43,048 nt of DNA from Bathymodiolus brooksi thiotrophic gill symbiont (lineage in GTDB: Bacteria; Pseudomonadota; Gammaproteobacteria; PS1; Pseudothioglobaceae): positions 1 to 43,048 of the forward strand of contig NZ_CAHJWD020000039.1 in assembly GCF_903642095.1 (NCBI RefSeq), given 5' to 3'. A program made the position numbers and the translations under genes. The notes beneath the pieces are model-generated. The model saw only the letters and a program-made list of their open reading frames with translations. It did not search any database and had not been told where the DNA came from. This document shows positions 7,498 through 31,520 of the stretch, piece by piece (positions within the stretch are counted from its first letter, which is position 1; each line of letters begins with the position of its first letter).

Positions 7498-8423
7498 AAA
7501 TAATTTTTGCAGGCACCCCTGAATTTTCAGTCAGTGTTTTAACAGCACTTATCAATGCTGGACATAACATTGTTGGCGTTTACTGCCAGCCTGACCGTCC
7601 CAAAGGTCGTGGTAGAGTATTAACCCCTTGCCCTGTTAAAACGCAAGCATTAGAATACAATCTGCCTGTTCTACAACCAGAAAGCCTCAAAGACGAAGAG
7701 GTGCAAACTGAACTTAAAAACTTAAATGCCGCTGTGATGGTAGTCGTGGCTTACGGTCAAATTCTACCCAAAGAAGTGCTACAAATACCGCAATATGGTT
7801 GTTTAAATATCCATGCCTCCTTATTACCTCGCTGGCGCGGTGCCGCCCCTATTCAACGCGCCATTCTCGCAGGCGACAAAACCACAGGCATCGGCATTAT
7901 GCAAATGAACGAAGGTCTAGACACTGGTGCTATTTTGCTCGAAAAAACCTGTGCAATCACCAACACCGATACCGCACAATCACTACACGATAAACTCGCC
8001 TCATTGGGTGCTGATGCCATTGTTACAGCCTTAAAAAACTTGAAAAATCTATCGCCCACACCACAAAATAAAACAGAGGTAACCTACGCCAAAAAACTCA
8101 AAAAAGATGAAGCATGGATAAACTGGACACAATCCGCTACACAAATCAACCGTCAAATCCGAGCTTTCAACCCCTACCCCATTGCCCAAACCAATGCCAC
8201 AAGTGATAAGTTTAACGAAAAAACATTACGCATCCTATCTGCCACCGCTATAAACAATAATCACAATGGCCAACCTGGTGAAATCATCAAACACGATAAA
8301 AAAGAATGTCTTGTTGCCACAGGCGATGGCATACTCAGCTTAAAAACTGTGCAACTCTCAGGGAAAAAAGCACTCAATATCACAGATTTTAGCAATGCCT
8401 ACACGCTCACAAAACTTAAATAA
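7494..8423 (+). CDS. fmt: Methionyl-tRNA formyltransferase
   Basis: Fmt formylates initiator Met-tRNA with 10-formyltetrahydrofolate before translation starts. The 309-residue protein has the N-terminal GART-like domain: [22 protein letters not shown], then the catalytic [20 protein letters not shown] near residues 104-123 and the Asp of MNEGLDTG near 142. The C-terminal anticodon-binding OB-like domain runs from about 205 ([23 protein letters not shown]). It starts inside the argH stop codon. The usual partner def is not adjacent here. Confidence 0.97.
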
Positions 8424-24662: not shown

Positions 24663-27880
<3,218 letters not shown>

Positions 27881-27883
27881 TTT

Positions 27884-28354
27884 CTAAAACCTTTTATCAT
27901 TTACTGGATAATCATAAGGCAAAATAGCACCTTTTTCTAAAGCGATTTTTACCACATCTCCAGCCCTAAATTGATCAGAGTTTTGCAACAATTCCTGTTG
28001 CCAAAAACTGTGCATTTCACACATTTGTGGATGCGTATGATTACACCCCAATACATGAAAACTACATTTACCCACTCGCCAAGGCCCATCACCTGTTATC
28101 TCACCCTCAATCAAATGAATACTATATTTTGGGTCTTTTTCCCAAAACAATTCAAAATACAAAATGCCTTTTGGATGCTGAAAAATCTCCTCAATCACCC
28201 GAGTTTCGCCATTGGGATATTTGATATACAATGGTGATTTCAGGGTAAATATTTTATTCATTTTATCTGGATTTTCAATAGCCTGTTCAACGGTAGTTTT
28301 AGTCAATTCCAATAATGTCTTACTTTTTATCTGTAGTTTATAACTAATTACCAA
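27884..28354 (-). CDS. Conserved-looking soluble protein of unknown function
   Basis: I do not recognise the family. The 156-residue form starts at TTG; an ATG at 28261 would give 125 residues starting MNKIFTLKSPLYIKYPNGETRVIEE. The core ILYFELFWEKDP ... GPWRVGKCSFHVLGCNHTHPQMCEMHSFWQQEL contains His and Cys residues spaced as in a possible metal site (CNHTHPQMCEMH). It runs into the ABC exporter with a three-base gap, so it is probably co-expressed with it. Confidence 0.65.
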   Translation of the reverse strand: MVISYKLQIKSKTLLELTKTTVEQAIENPDKMNKIFTLKSPLYIKYPNGETRVIEEIFQHPKGILYFELFWEKDPKYSIHLIEGEITGDGPWRVGKCSFHVLGCNHTHPQMCEMHSFWQQELLQNSDQFRAGDVVKIALEKGAILPYDYPVNDKRF

Positions 28355-28439
28355 ACTGGAAAAAAGTGGATTCTTGATAATTACTCATCTTTCTACCACT
28401 CTATTTTTTGCTTAATAAATCATTAGTTTTTTAGTTGTT

Positions 28440-28715
28440 TCATCGGCTTAACAATAAAGCCAATAATATTGCCCCACCAGCGATTACTAAACCAGCTGTT
28501 AAGTCTGTATTTTTTTTATTTTTACTAAAATGTTCTTGTACCTCTTCTATTGAATTAAAACCAATAGTTTGCATATACTTTAACATTTCTAATTTATTGC
28601 CACTTTTCACAATTAAGCCTAAAAATATTGTTATTTCATTAGACTTCACAGTGCCTTTAATAATTTTTTCTTGAATTTCTTCTAATTCTTTATATTCTCG
28701 CTTCAATAAAATCAT
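28440..28715 (-). CDS. Small tail-anchored protein paired with the RelA/SpoT-domain gene
   Basis: 91 residues: a helical, charged part (MILLKREYKELEEIQEKIIKG, then SIEEVQEHFSKNKKN) followed by one C-terminal TM helix (about residues 71-89, TAGLVIAGGAILLALLL) ending SR. It is probably a tail-anchored inner-membrane protein. Its ATG overlaps the stop of the upstream synthetase gene (TAATG), so the two are translationally coupled and likely act together. It could be an antitoxin, effector or membrane anchor. No family recognised. Confidence 0.65.
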   Translation of the reverse strand: MILLKREYKELEEIQEKIIKGTVKSNEITIFLGLIVKSGNKLEMLKYMQTIGFNSIEEVQEHFSKNKKNTDLTAGLVIAGGAILLALLLSR

Positions 28716-29839
28716 TACTTTTTGCTCCTATCAAATAATTTCAACATTTTTTTAGTAATATCTTTAGACATTGTTTTGGCTATTTTTTTTAATTCTTCAT
28801 CTTTTATACTGTCTATTATTTTTTGTTGTTTCTCATTTTCTACAACTAATTTAAATAGTTTATCCATACTCTTAATAAATTCTGTTGTATCCATAAAATA
28901 ATTTGGATAAGATTGTCGTAATTTTTTAATATCTTGTATTGATAACAATACAACTTCAACTGCATTATTATCAAAGTGCTCTAATTCCATTTTTAAATAA
29001 TCTTCATTAGCTTTTTCAAATTTAGCATCCGAATACTTGGATGCACTTATTTCTTTTTTTTCAAAGTTCATTTTTAACAACAAATATTTTCCTTTTGAAT
29101 TGTTCTCAACAAGTTTGCTAGCAATAGTAAAACTTCTCAACTTATCCAATAATTGTGCATTTTCAATATCTTGCTTTACTTCTTTTACAAATTCATCATC
29201 TATCTTTTTTTCTTCTAAACTGATAAATAATTTACTAATTTTTTTAAAAATATTTAAATATTTCTTATTTCCAAGACTTTGCTTTAAAAGCTGGTTTGAA
29301 AATGTCCCAGTTACCTCTACTGCTGTTGCCCAAGCGTGCTGTAGTCGCGTTCTTATTTGTATCTCTACTCTACATTGTTTTCTTAATTCTATGCCTTTAT
29401 CATATTTATATACCATGTGAATACTTCTATAGCCACTATCTGCAGGTGTTTCTATATAATTTTTTTCATTTGCAAAAGTAAATTTGAAATTCCTGTGTTT
29501 TTCTACTTTTTTGATCTCATCTCTAATTAAATTCGCCTCTTGTATTGTATCAACAACAATTCTCAAACCCCCAATATCTTGCATTCTAGATAATTGCATG
29601 TTTTCTTGTATTTCTAGCTTTTTAACAATTGATGGTATTCTTTTTAATCGCTGAGAAACAAGGGCATTAATATTGTGTTTCTTTAATTTTCTATCTATTG
29701 TATGTCTAAATAAAGTCATTGGATGTTGATGGATGAGCCTAAAGCCTTTTAATATGTTGTCAGCATCATTTTTAGAAAGATTATTTGACTTTCCAATAAA
29801 ACAATATCCAGCTTGATTAATTTTCTCTTTAGTTATCAT
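28715..29839 (-). CDS. RelA/SpoT-domain nucleotide pyrophosphokinase in an accessory cassette
   Basis: A 374-residue protein with a RelA/SpoT synthetase domain at about 60-190: RLKRIPSIVKKLE, SRMQDIGGLRIVV (substrate-binding Asp and Arg), NYIETPADSGYRSIHMVYKY (G-loop with the nucleotide-stacking Tyr) and CRVEIQIRTRLQHAWATAVEVTGTF (catalytic EIQIRT). It has no HD hydrolase, TGS or ACT domain, so it is a single-function synthetase. The QHAWATAVE variant differs from housekeeping RelA/SpoT. The C-terminal 180 residues are helical and Lys-rich, without a known family. The start ATG follows TTGGAG by eight bases. Its neighbours are a tiny ORF upstream and a TM protein downstream, an arrangement suggesting toxin-antitoxin or phage defence. 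That role is inferred. Confidence 0.85.
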   Translation of the reverse strand: MITKEKINQAGYCFIGKSNNLSKNDADNILKGFRLIHQHPMTLFRHTIDRKLKKHNINALVSQRLKRIPSIVKKLEIQENMQLSRMQDIGGLRIVVDTIQEANLIRDEIKKVEKHRNFKFTFANEKNYIETPADSGYRSIHMVYKYDKGIELRKQCRVEIQIRTRLQHAWATAVEVTGTFSNQLLKQSLGNKKYLNIFKKISKLFISLEEKKIDDEFVKEVKQDIENAQLLDKLRSFTIASKLVENNSKGKYLLLKMNFEKKEISASKYSDAKFEKANEDYLKMELEHFDNNAVEVVLLSIQDIKKLRQSYPNYFMDTTEFIKSMDKLFKLVVENEKQQKIIDSIKDEELKKIAKTMSKDITKKMLKLFDRSKK

Positions 29840-29870
29840 TAAATTAACTCCAAAAACTCAATTTCTGTTT

Positions 29871-30024
29871 TTACGCCCACTTCTCAAACGCACTTGCAAT
29901 TTTTTTTTAAATCATGCTTTTGGATTAAGTGATTATACTCGCCTAATAATCTTTCACCAGATTCATCAACTTCGTAAATTTCTTTGTCTGAATTATCTTT
30001 ACCTGAGTTTTTACCAATCGCCAT
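29871..30024 (-). CDS. Tiny ORF upstream of the synthetase, frame broken at an A9 run
   Basis: The ATG at 30024 follows a GGAGG-like site (GTGGAGGCG). As written, the frame ends after 46 residues at 29884. Around 29900 there is a run of nine A. Removing one A continues the protein as KKIASAFEKWA to a TAA at 29871 (50 residues), a more protein-like ending. The conserved-looking middle is EIYEVDESGERLLGEYNHL, and the peptide is acidic. It sits 31 bases before the synthetase start. Either the gene is freshly frameshifted, the run is a sequencing error, or polymerase slippage at A9 makes both forms. A small antitoxin is a plausible role. Confidence 0.45.
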
Positions 30025-30184
30025 AAAGATCCTATCGCCTCCACTTCGCAAAATTATAAATAAATACAGCCTATTTTTTTATTGCATTATTCTGAATCAA
30101 TTCAGGGTATCTTTTAAAATATTAACGGTTTCAGGTCTGGTAAATACAGGCAAGTGTAAAAATTACAAAATATGGTGCGTATTG

Positions 30185-30278
30185 GCTATTTACTTCTGCC
30201 CAATGAGAGGTTAATTTATTTAGTTGGCAAACAATCAACACTCTATTGGGCAACAATACCAGACACATTAATTATTAG
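30185..30278 (+). pseudogene. Decayed copy of the dnaE 3' end
   Basis: Read on the plus strand, the fragment encodes INTLLGNNTRHINY and a stop, against INILLGNNTSRINY and stop at the end of the full dnaE at 39.0 kb. Nucleotide similarity continues upstream for some tens of bases (around TGCCCAA), then fades. There is no intact frame. With the adjacent Sel1 fragment it forms an inverted partial duplicate of the sel1-dnaE junction. Confidence 0.75.
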
Positions 30279-30296
30279 ATGACACCTTAAGCTTCT

Positions 30297-30412
30297 TTAT
30301 TTTTTTAACCTAGCGTAATTTTTACAACCAATTGCACCCTTCAAATCACACGCCTTTTGATAAAACTCTACTGCTTTGGGATCATCTTGTTTAACACTTA
30401 CTTGTATAAATT
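30297..30412 (-). pseudogene. Decayed Sel1-repeat gene fragment
   Basis: On the minus strand the fragment reads VKQDDPKAVEFYQKACDLKG, then AIGCKNYARLKK and a stop. It matches the intact Sel1 gene at 38631-38981 closely at both DNA and protein level. Relative to that gene, one repeat unit of 36 residues is missing between the two KAC motifs. A stop lies upstream and there is no start or signal peptide. Its 3' side continues into the dnaE fragment, as at the intact locus. Confidence 0.8.
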
Positions 30413-30434
30413 AATCACCTCTAATGTCGTATTT

Positions 30435-30465
30435 TTGTAAAAATAGATGTTTTTTCTGTTATCAT
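30435..30465 (+). promoter_or_regulatory. Candidate promoter upstream of hicB
   Basis: TTGTAA and an extended -10 TGTTATCAT (TATCAT at 30460-30465) are separated by 19 bases, a long spacer. The same TTCTGTTATCATA string occurs in the promoter region of the RDD gene. The leader to hicB would be about 180 bases. Confidence 0.3.
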
Positions 30466-30651
30466 AATCGTTAATATTGATAAATTAAAGCTATGTGAGA
30501 AATGTTTTATCTCTTAATCGTATATTAAGTAGATGTCTTTTTTCATTTCAAAAAAAAGATAAAAACACACTGACTTTATATAGTTCTTACTTTGATACAG
30601 CATATTGGGGAAATGTTTTCTTATACTAAAATATGGGATGAGGGATAAATT

Positions 30652-30870
30652 ATGAAAACAATTATTAAGAAAGATGGTGATGGTTATTTAGCCAAAGTAA
30701 AAGGGCATCAAAATTTATTTGCATTTGCTTATTCTGAGAAAGAAGCAATTATGGAATTAAAAAATGTCGTTGAGATGATTATGGATTATCATCTTGAACA
30801 AGCAAATGATGAAAGAATTATCAAAAATGAGTTAACTCATGCGGTAGAAGAGTATACCGTTCAAGTATAG
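30652..30870 (+). CDS. hicB: HicB-type antitoxin, now without a working toxin gene
   Basis: A 72-residue protein with the HicB beta-alpha-beta fold: MKTIIKKDGDGYLAKVKGHQNLFAFAYSEKEAIMELKNVVEMIMDYH. The KDGDGY start and the alternating pattern are those of the partial RNase-H-like fold of HicB, which neutralises HicA mRNA interferases. It is preceded by GATGAGGG. The usual order here is hicB then hicA with overlapping ends, but the downstream hicA is broken. A C-terminal DNA-binding domain is not recognisable in this short form. Confidence 0.75.
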   Translation: MKTIIKKDGDGYLAKVKGHQNLFAFAYSEKEAIMELKNVVEMIMDYHLEQANDERIIKNELTHAVEEYTVQV

Positions 30871-31062
30871 AGAATTTGAAAGAAAATTAACAAACTTGGA
30901 TATAGGGTTGTGCGTCAAAAAGGATCGCATGTTATATTTTCAAATGGAAAAAATACATTTCCAGTGCCAAATCACGGATCAAAAGATATTTCTCCTAGCG
31001 TTGAAAGCCAGTTATTGAAAATACTAAACTTAACAATCAATAAATTTAGAAAAATCAAGTAG
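30863..31062 (+). pseudogene. hicA: hicA toxin pseudogene
   Basis: The sequence encodes KYREFERKLTNL, then in a shifted frame YRVVRQKGSHVIF followed by NTFPVPNHGSKDISP, the HicA dsRBD-like fold with the catalytic His of GSHVIF. There is no start codon in the first frame. One G appears to be missing at about 30897 (TTGGAT where TTGGGAT restores the frame). The junction CAAGTATAGAG suggests that a 7-base deletion between AGTAT direct repeats removed the ATG that would normally overlap the hicB stop. The toxin is inactive on two counts. Confidence 0.85.
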
Positions 31063-31065
31063 AGC

Positions 31066-31122
31066 ACCTAACAAATCATTTTAGCCGAGTGCTAATGTAT
31101 TGGCTGAATTCTAACGATAGGC
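31066..31122 (+). repeat. attC-like integron recombination site after hicA
   Basis: ACCTAAC at 31066 fits the attC R'' core RYYYAAC. The site ends 57 bases on with GATAGGC, one base off the R' core GTTRRRY. Inner arms TTTAGCC and GGCTGAA can pair. CTAACAAATCATT is the string commonly found at the start of attC sites. It begins three bases after the toxin stop codon, as in gene cassettes. No integrase gene is in the window. A run of seven T directly after it may also help terminate transcription. Confidence 0.5.
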
Positions 31123-31139
31123 GTTTTTTTGGCTTAAAA

Positions 31140-31520
31140 TTATGGCTCAAAAGAACACTTAATTTCATCAAAGCCAAAGCCTCGAGATTGTAAAAAGCGT
31201 TGTTGTTTGGCTTTTTCTTTGTAGTTACTTGGGGTTGCTTCGCTGTATTTTGATATTCTAACTTCTTTTGCTAGGGTGAAAAAATCATATGCAGATAAAT
31301 CAAAATTTTCAATGCCTCGTTGTTTTAAATCAATGGCTATTTTGATTGGGCCTTTGCCTTGGTTAAAACGCATTTGAATAAATTCATTGGTAAAGCGTTC
31401 ATCAGATTGATGATTTTGATTTTTAAGTTTTTCTAGTGCTTGTTCTATTGTGTCTTCTTCATAGTATTGTGCAAGTTTTCTGGTGAGTTCAAAATAAGAA
31501 TGCTCGCGTTTAGCGAGCAT
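31140..31520 (-). CDS. recX: RecX, RecA modulator
   Basis: RecX limits RecA filament growth. The 126-residue protein has the three-helix repeats of the family: LAKREHSYFELTRKLAQYYEEDTIEQALEKLKNQNHQSDERFTNEFIQMRFNQGKGPIKIAIDLKQRGI, and KAKQQRFLQSRGFGFDEIKCSF at the end. The ATG at 31520 falls just at the conserved ALKMLAKREHS block, so the N terminus is short. Upstream in-frame codons (CTG, ATT) could serve as rare starts. It follows recA by 25 bases. The ATG lies inside a stable hairpin, described separately. Confidence 0.9.
   Translation of the reverse strand: MLAKREHSYFELTRKLAQYYEEDTIEQALEKLKNQNHQSDERFTNEFIQMRFNQGKGPIKIAIDLKQRGIENFDLSAYDFFTLAKEVRISKYSEATPSNYKEKAKQQRFLQSRGFGFDEIKCSFEP

What the first reader, a model, noticed from the sequence alone, without database searches (positions are those of the whole stretch)
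28440..30024. Possible three-part alarmone-synthetase cassette: tiny ORF, RelA/SpoT-domain enzyme, tail-anchored protein
Seen: the synthetase has intact motifs (DIGGLR, GYRSIHMVY, EIQIRT) but no hydrolase or regulatory domains. It is followed, with TAATG coupling, by a 91-residue protein ending in a single TM helix, and preceded by an approximately 50-residue acidic ORF. Known: single-domain RelA/SpoT toxins (toxSAS, CapRel) occur with small antitoxins and act in growth arrest or phage defence. Inference: this may be a membrane-linked toxin-antitoxin or defence system whose small partners are undescribed. The surrounding pseudogenes and TA remnants support an accessory island.
Basis: partly seen in the sequence, partly recalled or inferred. 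Interest (0 to 1): 0.75.

Follow-up and report, generated by a model that had tools for sequence, protein, structure and literature searches.

The report
Membrane-tethered CapRel-type defence toxin
A bacterium related to deep-sea mussel symbionts carries a self-inhibited toxin of the CapRel anti-phage family next to a small membrane protein that relatives fuse directly onto it, which suggests a membrane-bound version of a known bacterial immune switch.

Summary
The synthetase (28715-29839, minus) is real and intact. It is not a bare RelA/SpoT domain but a CapRel-type fused toxin-antitoxin: PADLOC PDC-S33 matches it (4.6e-97) and also CapRel-SJ46 (7e-87); CapRel's ATP-site arginines, G-loop Tyr and YXXY auto-inhibition motif are present; CapRel is its nearest solved fold.

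The TAATG-coupled 91-aa protein (28440-28715) is a real partner of an undescribed family. It lies directly downstream in all 4 genomes with a strong synthetase match (2 intact pairs, 2 broken), and two natural proteins (459 and 463 aa) fuse enzyme and partner.

The tiny ORF is not an antitoxin but the 3' relic of a type I restriction hsdM gene. The nearest outside relatives sit inside type I restriction operons (hsdM directly upstream in 5 of 80 loci). In one sister genome the same membrane domain is fused to an unrelated protein, directly after a related hsdM.

Best reading: a CapRel-type translation toxin held at the membrane by an anchor that other effectors may share, an ex-passenger of a restriction island at a defence hotspot. 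Tethering, toxicity and phage defence are inferred. New variant of a known kind.

The parts
28715..29839 (-). CapRel-type fused toxin-antitoxin, 374 aa
   Evidence: Pfam RelA_SpoT; PADLOC PDC-S33 4.6e-97; PDB 7ztb/9erv about 5e-33; top three Foldseek matches are CapRel, E 8.9e-19 to 4.3e-18
29150..29839 (-). toxSYNTH region, residues 1-230 (R64, R93, Y137 = SJ46 R79, R116, G-loop Y155)
   Evidence: residue mapping; each invariant in 56 of 56 rows
28865..29149 (-). pseudo-zinc-finger (in-cis antitoxin) region, residues about 231-325
   Evidence: co-linear with CapRel-SJ46; boundaries approximate; model pLDDT 57-80 per ten residues over 231-320
28898..28909 (-). YPNY = YXXY auto-inhibition motif (Y311, Y314)
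   Evidence: maps to SJ46 Y352/Y355; Tyr in 54 and 56 of 56 rows
28718..28864 (-). C-terminal helical extension, residues 326-374, proposed partner-docking arm
   Evidence: tail after YPNYF is 46-63 aa in 36 of the 42 closest proteins against 15-39 aa in 67 of the 72 measurable others listed, the other 5 having 47-59; modelled as helices 319-344 and 348-367
28440..28715 (-). membrane partner, 91 aa, translationally coupled
   Evidence: 14 database proteins including a 99% one; no Pfam or NCBIfam match up to E 1, PADLOC only 0.0075; fused to the synthetase in P0041 and P0042
28449..28499 (-). C-terminal hydrophobic segment of the partner (residues 73-89)
   Evidence: hydropathy 2.43; matching helix 442-462 in the fusion model
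29854..30030 (-).
   Evidence: tblastn 49%, 4e-11; 77% nt; reading frame broken
28336..28392 (.). relic resembling part of a dispersed repeat, also beside the partner in G011 and in an insert in G007
   Evidence: blastn 79-81%
27884..28354 (-). conserved flanking ORF on the low-coordinate side of the hotspot; not part of the system
   Evidence: 73-93% identical pieces in the stretches of 6 other genus genomes

Best explanation
A two-gene CapRel-type anti-phage toxin unit with a membrane tether. The 374-aa protein is a self-inhibited pyrophosphokinase: its C-terminal pseudo-zinc-finger plugs the ATP site through YPNY until a phage-made trigger pulls it away; the freed enzyme stops translation (by homology, pyrophosphorylation of tRNA CCA ends) and the cell aborts infection. 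The co-translated 91-aa protein is a C-tail-anchored membrane adaptor: a small four-helix cytosolic domain binds the enzyme's clade-specific C-terminal helical arm and holds it at the inner membrane. The unit came with a type I restriction operon (passenger slot after hsdM) and now stands alone in a defence hotspot. Shown by computation: CapRel homology and motifs, the adjacent pair and its fusion, the hsdM relic, the hotspot. Inferred: membrane location, docking on the arm, toxicity, tRNA as target, phage trigger.
For: CapRel identity. Pair: TAATG overlap; partner adjacent in all 4 genomes with a synthetase match over 300 bits, two of these copies broken; 7 of 13 partner clusters other than the 99% one share their longest-contig length with a synthetase cluster (lengths only, contigs not read). 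Natural fusions P0041 (15 member sequences) and P0042 (3); partner part and terminal helix in the model. The C-terminal arm is nearly confined to this clade and absent from its early-branching members P0036, P0037, P0040. The same domain ends a different protein after a related hsdM in G008. Restriction context: hsdM directly upstream in 5 of 80 loci, with hsdS and hsdR in 4 of these.
Against: No experiment. Enzyme-partner docking was not modelled as a complex; in the fusion model residues 369-373 have pLDDT below 50, so relative placement is unknown. Enzyme and partner identities correlate only weakly over 9 pairs (r 0.34, 70 of 2000 permutations as high). G011 keeps an open partner ORF without an enzyme. 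The G008 fusion has an in-frame stop in its hydrophobic segment. A search for other proteins of about 255-810 aa with the domain returned only P0041, though it also missed P0042, so its reach is short.
Confidence: 0.55

Rival explanations
1. Partner as trans antitoxin or co-inhibitor: the membrane protein sequesters the synthetase in the resting cell and a membrane disturbance (for example phage entry or lysis) releases it.
For: Gene order and coupling fit a toxin-antitoxin pair; an open orphan partner persists in G011, as solitary antitoxins can; CapRel enzymes with a separate antitoxin exist (CapRel of Vibrio harveyi with PanA, PMC8832971 passages).
Against: The enzyme has a complete in-cis inhibitory module; I see no YXXY in the partner alignment (by eye); in the wider family only 5 of 67 loci examined (13 of 80 left out) have a same-strand ORF starting within -40 to +60 bases of the enzyme's end with a segment of hydropathy 1.9 or more.
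Confidence: 0.17
2. Partner as second effector: a small membrane-damaging protein (pore or depolariser) set free or oligomerised when the enzyme is triggered.
For: Gly/Ala-rich hydrophobic tail; membrane-damaging toxins occur in toxin-antitoxin pairs (PMC8832971 passages).
Against: Covalent fusion to the enzyme's C-terminus and a folded charged helical domain fit an anchor better than a free pore. Family scans gave only weak matches; one of 16 members touches a holin family at 0.021, which I read as chance.
Confidence: 0.13
3. Restriction guard: like PrrC in EcoprrI, the synthetase monitors a type I restriction complex and fires when a phage protein inhibits it.
For: Nearest outside relatives lie in hsdM-synthetase-hsdS operons, overlapping hsdM by 4 bases in L040, L042 and L043; the hsdM relic ends 14 bases before the window gene. 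PrrC as guard: PMC12707154 passages.
Against: In the window hsdM is dead, and 18-kb stretches around the G002 and G004 copies, which lie between proB and folK, have no hsdM match, yet the window and G002 pairs are intact; so guarding cannot be the present job there.
Confidence: 0.1
4. Housekeeping (p)ppGpp synthetase plus an unrelated small membrane gene.
For: RelA_SpoT domain; match to YjbM far below the cut-off.
Against: YjbM score 58 against a cut-off of 320; CapRel architecture; patchy, decaying distribution.
Confidence: 0.03

Closest known systems
CapRel-SJ46 (Salmonella phage SJ46; PDB 7ztb, 9erv; PADLOC PDC-S33)
   Same: toxSYNTH plus pseudo-zinc-finger in one chain; R79/R116/Y155 and YXXY equivalents; same PADLOC model
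   Different: 30.6% identity over 80% of the query; 59-residue tail after YPNYF where SJ46 has 17 (counted); coupled membrane partner
Bicistronic toxSAS pairs (FaRel2-ATfaRel2; PhRel2 and some CapRel with PanA)
   Same: toxSAS enzyme with a small coupled gene (PMC11782079 and PMC8832971, passages)
   Different: here the inhibitory domain is already in the enzyme; the partner matches no named family convincingly
PrrC in EcoprrI; DarTG2 in a type I restriction locus
   Same: toxic enzyme gene embedded in a type I restriction operon (PMC12707154 and PMC12255303, passages)
   Different: effector is CapRel-like; in the window only an hsdM relic remains

Membership tests
CapRel fused toxSAS | toxSYNTH plus C-terminal pseudo-zinc-finger antitoxin in one chain | tested here: met
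   alignment over residues 21-325; fold match over 350-353 columns, rmsd 7.7-8.9 A, so domain placement differs or is unsure
CapRel fused toxSAS | ATP-site arginines and G-loop Tyr (R79, R116, Y155) | tested here: met
   R64, R93, Y137; 56 of 56 rows each
CapRel fused toxSAS | YXXY neutralisation motif with V338/L339 scaffold | tested here: met
   YPNY 311-314, V297, L298
CapRel fused toxSAS | same family profile as the type member | tested here: met
   PDC-S33: window 4.6e-97, SJ46 7e-87
CapRel fused toxSAS | tRNA CCA pyrophosphorylation, released by a phage protein | not testable with these tools
   needs experiment
Housekeeping small alarmone synthetase (YjbM/RelQ) | NCBIfam YjbM cut-off 320 bits | tested here: not met
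   58 bits
Bicistronic toxSAS TA with separate YXXY antitoxin | YXXY motif in the small partner | tested here: not met
   none seen in the 15-row partner alignment (read by eye)
Bicistronic toxSAS TA | partner neutralises the enzyme | not testable with these tools
   needs co-expression
Type I restriction-embedded toxin | lies inside an intact hsd operon | tested here: not met
   window: hsdM relic only. Relatives L040-L043 lie in hsd operons, the hsdM of L041 apparently split
C-tail-anchored membrane protein | one C-terminal hydrophobic helix with a very short tail | tested here: met
   best 17-residue hydropathy 1.88-2.52 at the C-terminus in all 14 database partners; membrane insertion itself not tested

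The most novel reading that the evidence does not exclude
A lineage-specific membrane-anchor module that is swapped between unrelated suicide effectors (CapRel in some genomes, an RX4H-motif protein in another) in one passenger slot behind type I hsdM, so that the bacterium's abortive toxins are fired at the membrane, where phage DNA entry or early phage proteins are met.
Probability: 0.3. Interest if true: 0.68.

Novelty: new variant of a known kind. Interest (0 to 1): 0.5.

Why it matters
CapRel is a leading example of a bacterial immune protein that senses phage proteins directly. A version physically linked to the membrane, and others living inside restriction operons, would raise a testable question: does location or a restriction complex set what such a sensor sees? 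The natural fusion makes the tether easy to test.

Tried and rejected
Tiny ORF as antitoxin, and the three-part cassette: rejected, the ORF is an hsdM relic.

Partner with phages or plasmids: no confirmed match in viral contigs (97 pattern hits, none confirmed) and none in plasmids. Partner outside the host's family: in a draw of 369 class genomes the only 3 hits were of that family. Other effectors fused to the partner domain: one search returned only P0041 and missed P0042. So the modular-anchor reading rests on one genome, G008, whose fusion carries an in-frame stop.

Label HEPN for the G008 protein: by an RX4H motif recalled from memory only; Pfam, NCBIfam, PADLOC and solved sequences gave no support, and its N-part found no relative in 369 class genomes, a search without a positive control. 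I do not claim it.

G022 as an independent context for the partner: rejected, it also holds a synthetase fragment.

Mirror-tree test: weak. Fold search of the fusion: the 50 rows shown are alarmone-synthetase structures, nothing for the partner. Partner profile against solved sequences: best 0.018, not pursued.

Full report
Setting. The window is one contig of a 2.37-Mb, 548-contig genome. So this is a sulphur-oxidising mussel symbiont or close kin; the family name Thioglobaceae is my reading of these titles and of names.

The enzyme. The 374-aa ORF has the RelA_SpoT domain at residues 63-172. PADLOC places it in PDC-S33 at 4.6e-97, and the CapRel of phage SJ46 hits the same model at 7e-87. 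Its best solved sequence relatives are the two CapRel entries, about 5e-33 over residues 21-325; the AlphaFold2 model (pLDDT 84.4, pTM 0.81) has CapRel as its top three Foldseek matches (E 8.9e-19 to 4.3e-18, TM 0.61 by query, rmsd 7.7-8.9 A, so domain placement differs or is unsure). In a 56-row alignment SJ46 R79, R116, Y155, V338, L339, Y352 and Y355 map to R64, R93, Y137, V297, L298, Y311 and Y314; all are invariant except Y311 (54 of 56). Three other SJ46 interface residues, A77, A341 and A351, are Ser here. PMC9712102 (passages only) reports that the pseudo-zinc-finger docks on the ATP site through YXXY, that changes there make CapRel toxic, and that a phage capsid protein releases it.

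The partner. The 91-aa protein overlaps the synthetase stop by TAATG. Fourteen database proteins match, one of them 99% identical. Pfam and NCBIfam gave nothing up to E 1 and PADLOC only Orf5 at 0.0075; over 16 aligned members the best Pfam match is 0.0061, and PHROGs nothing below 0.035. By profile it occurs in 7 of 83 family genomes; in a separate draw of 369 class genomes only 3 hit, all of the family. The 4 of 95 genomes with a synthetase match over 300 bits all carry it directly downstream: own and G002 intact, G007 disrupted, G004 decayed. The other 65 of 69 genomes that matched gave weak matches, mostly within long open frames that look like the usual long RelA/SpoT proteins; one, G084, has a 34% relative (112 bits) in a 420-aa frame. 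The three partner-bearing genomes without a usable synthetase are G022 (synthetase fragment and partial partner), G011 (orphan) and G008 (fused to something else).

Fusion. P0041 (463 aa, 15 member sequences) and P0042 (459 aa, 3) are synthetase and partner in one chain; P0039, 85% identical to P0041, has no partner attached (375 aa). In the P0041 model (pLDDT 82.3) the partner part is four short helices and a terminal helix 442-462. The synthetase tail after YPNYF measures 46-63 residues in 36 of the 42 closest proteins (3 have 18-22, 2 are the fusions, 1 lacks the motif). Of the other 78 listed, 6 lack the motif, 67 have 15-39 residues and 5 have 47-59 (fragments included). The three short ones branch early in the clade. 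The arm and the partner seem to have been gained together; that the arm docks the partner is inference.

Restriction context. The G008 protein matches N6_Mtase and HSDR_N_2 in Pfam and PADLOC MTase_I at 3e-237. In G008 it is followed after 3 bases by a 293-aa ORF whose end is the partner domain (37% to the window's) and then a RhuM-Fic protein. In a scan of one genome per species (84,980) with two peptide patterns, 520 stretches were confirmed and the best 80 kept. hsdM lies directly upstream in 5 of these 80 (L040-L043, L078), all candidate-phyla (Patescibacteria) genomes and among the six loci with 45-47% best-segment identity outside the symbionts. hsdS and hsdR are present in 4 (L078 ends too soon). 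The sixth, L039, has a dnaK-like gene upstream (by eye). In L043 a 217-aa protein with a strongly hydrophobic N-terminus sits between synthetase and hsdS: another, unrelated membrane neighbour. In the tree of 87 rows (P0002-P0060 of 330 aa or more, 7 further proteins, loci up to L062 that show YPNYF, window, G002, SJ46) the symbiont rows form one clade (39 rows with P0065 inside, 100/99), and 23 rows including L039-L043 another (100/98; not only Patescibacteria: P0043 is named Omnitrophica). The fork joining just these two is weak (92/21); with P0084 they make a 64-row set at 100/99. In most other loci the enzyme shows no hsdM match.

Hotspot. recX and the 156-aa ORF/ABC gene flank the unit. 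In 8 of 12 genus genomes the place could be read: the pair (own), the disrupted pair (G007), AIPR and RhuM genes (G011), an AAA_13-like ATPase piece (below the Pfam cut-off) with what looks by eye like a transposase after it (G002), an NYN protein (G003), a D12 methyltransferase and AAA_15 ATPase with a methyltransferase relic (G004), an outer-membrane-like ORF by eye (G005), and in G008, on two separate contigs, a similar ORF after recX and an HsdR C-terminal part (T1RH-like_C 5.6e-92) right before the 156-aa ORF. In G006 recX and the ABC gene are over 100 kb apart; G001 matched neither, and G009 and G010 lack the ABC match. G002 and G004 carry their synthetase elsewhere, between proB and folK (names by eye). 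So the unit changes place over evolutionary time and decays: two inserts with matching ends in the enzyme and a frameshift in the partner in G007, stops in G004.

Selection. Window against G002: dN/dS 0.20 (enzyme), 0.34 (partner); 0.15 for residues 1-230, 0.32 for 231-325, 0.29 for the arm (synonymous sites near saturation). The faster pseudo-zinc-finger fits the arms-race pattern described for CapRel (PMC9712102 passages).

Literature. Searches of the held open-licence library for CapRel or toxSAS with transmembrane, tail-anchored, type I restriction, hsdM, hsdS, PrrC or restriction-modification listed no paper whose title or abstract start speaks of a membrane-linked CapRel or of CapRel inside restriction operons. 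The lists were capped (15 of 334, 12 of 595, 10 of 36 and 15 of 69 shown; all 9 and all 5), so this is weak evidence of absence. PMC13423816 (abstract) shows another CapRel sensing FtsZ with a phage protein. Toxins embedded in type I restriction loci are known: PrrC (PMC12707154) and DarTG2 (PMC12255303), passages read.

Verdict. A pair that proves to be CapRel with an undescribed membrane adaptor and a restriction past. The enzyme's identity is well supported (about 0.9); the adaptor function is a reasoned inference (about 0.55).

Noticed in passing
window 27880-31143; L128-L134: Interval between recX and the 156-aa ORF/ABC gene is a defence hotspot whose cargo differs from genome to genome (AIPR, RhuM, NYN, ATPases, methyltransferases, HsdR part).
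   Followed up: partly
L043:7016-7669: 217-aa protein with a strongly hydrophobic N-terminus between a CapRel-type gene and hsdS in a Patescibacterial type I restriction operon; Fic-domain proteins lie between hsdS and hsdR in L041 and L043.
   Followed up: partly
L031:6894-7053 and 7873-8033: Two inserts with matching ends (like miniature transposons) interrupt the G007 synthetase; similar sequence lies near the G011 orphan partner.
   Followed up: partly
L034:2405-3286: 293-aa ORF with an RX4H motif (recalled label) fused to the membrane-partner domain after hsdM; an in-frame stop lies in the hydrophobic segment.
   Followed up: partly
window 30652-30870 (+): 72-aa ORF with a below-cut-off match to UPF0150-like (0.0053); perhaps a lone HicB-like relic.
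   Followed up: no
L032:8268-9676; L033:8300-9690: A second chromosomal site for the unit, between proB and folK, intact in G002 and decayed in G004.
   Followed up: partly
G000:C367:10602-11498; G000:C141:941-1845: Other N6 methyltransferase genes in the window's own genome, one of them matched in two adjacent pieces.
   Followed up: no
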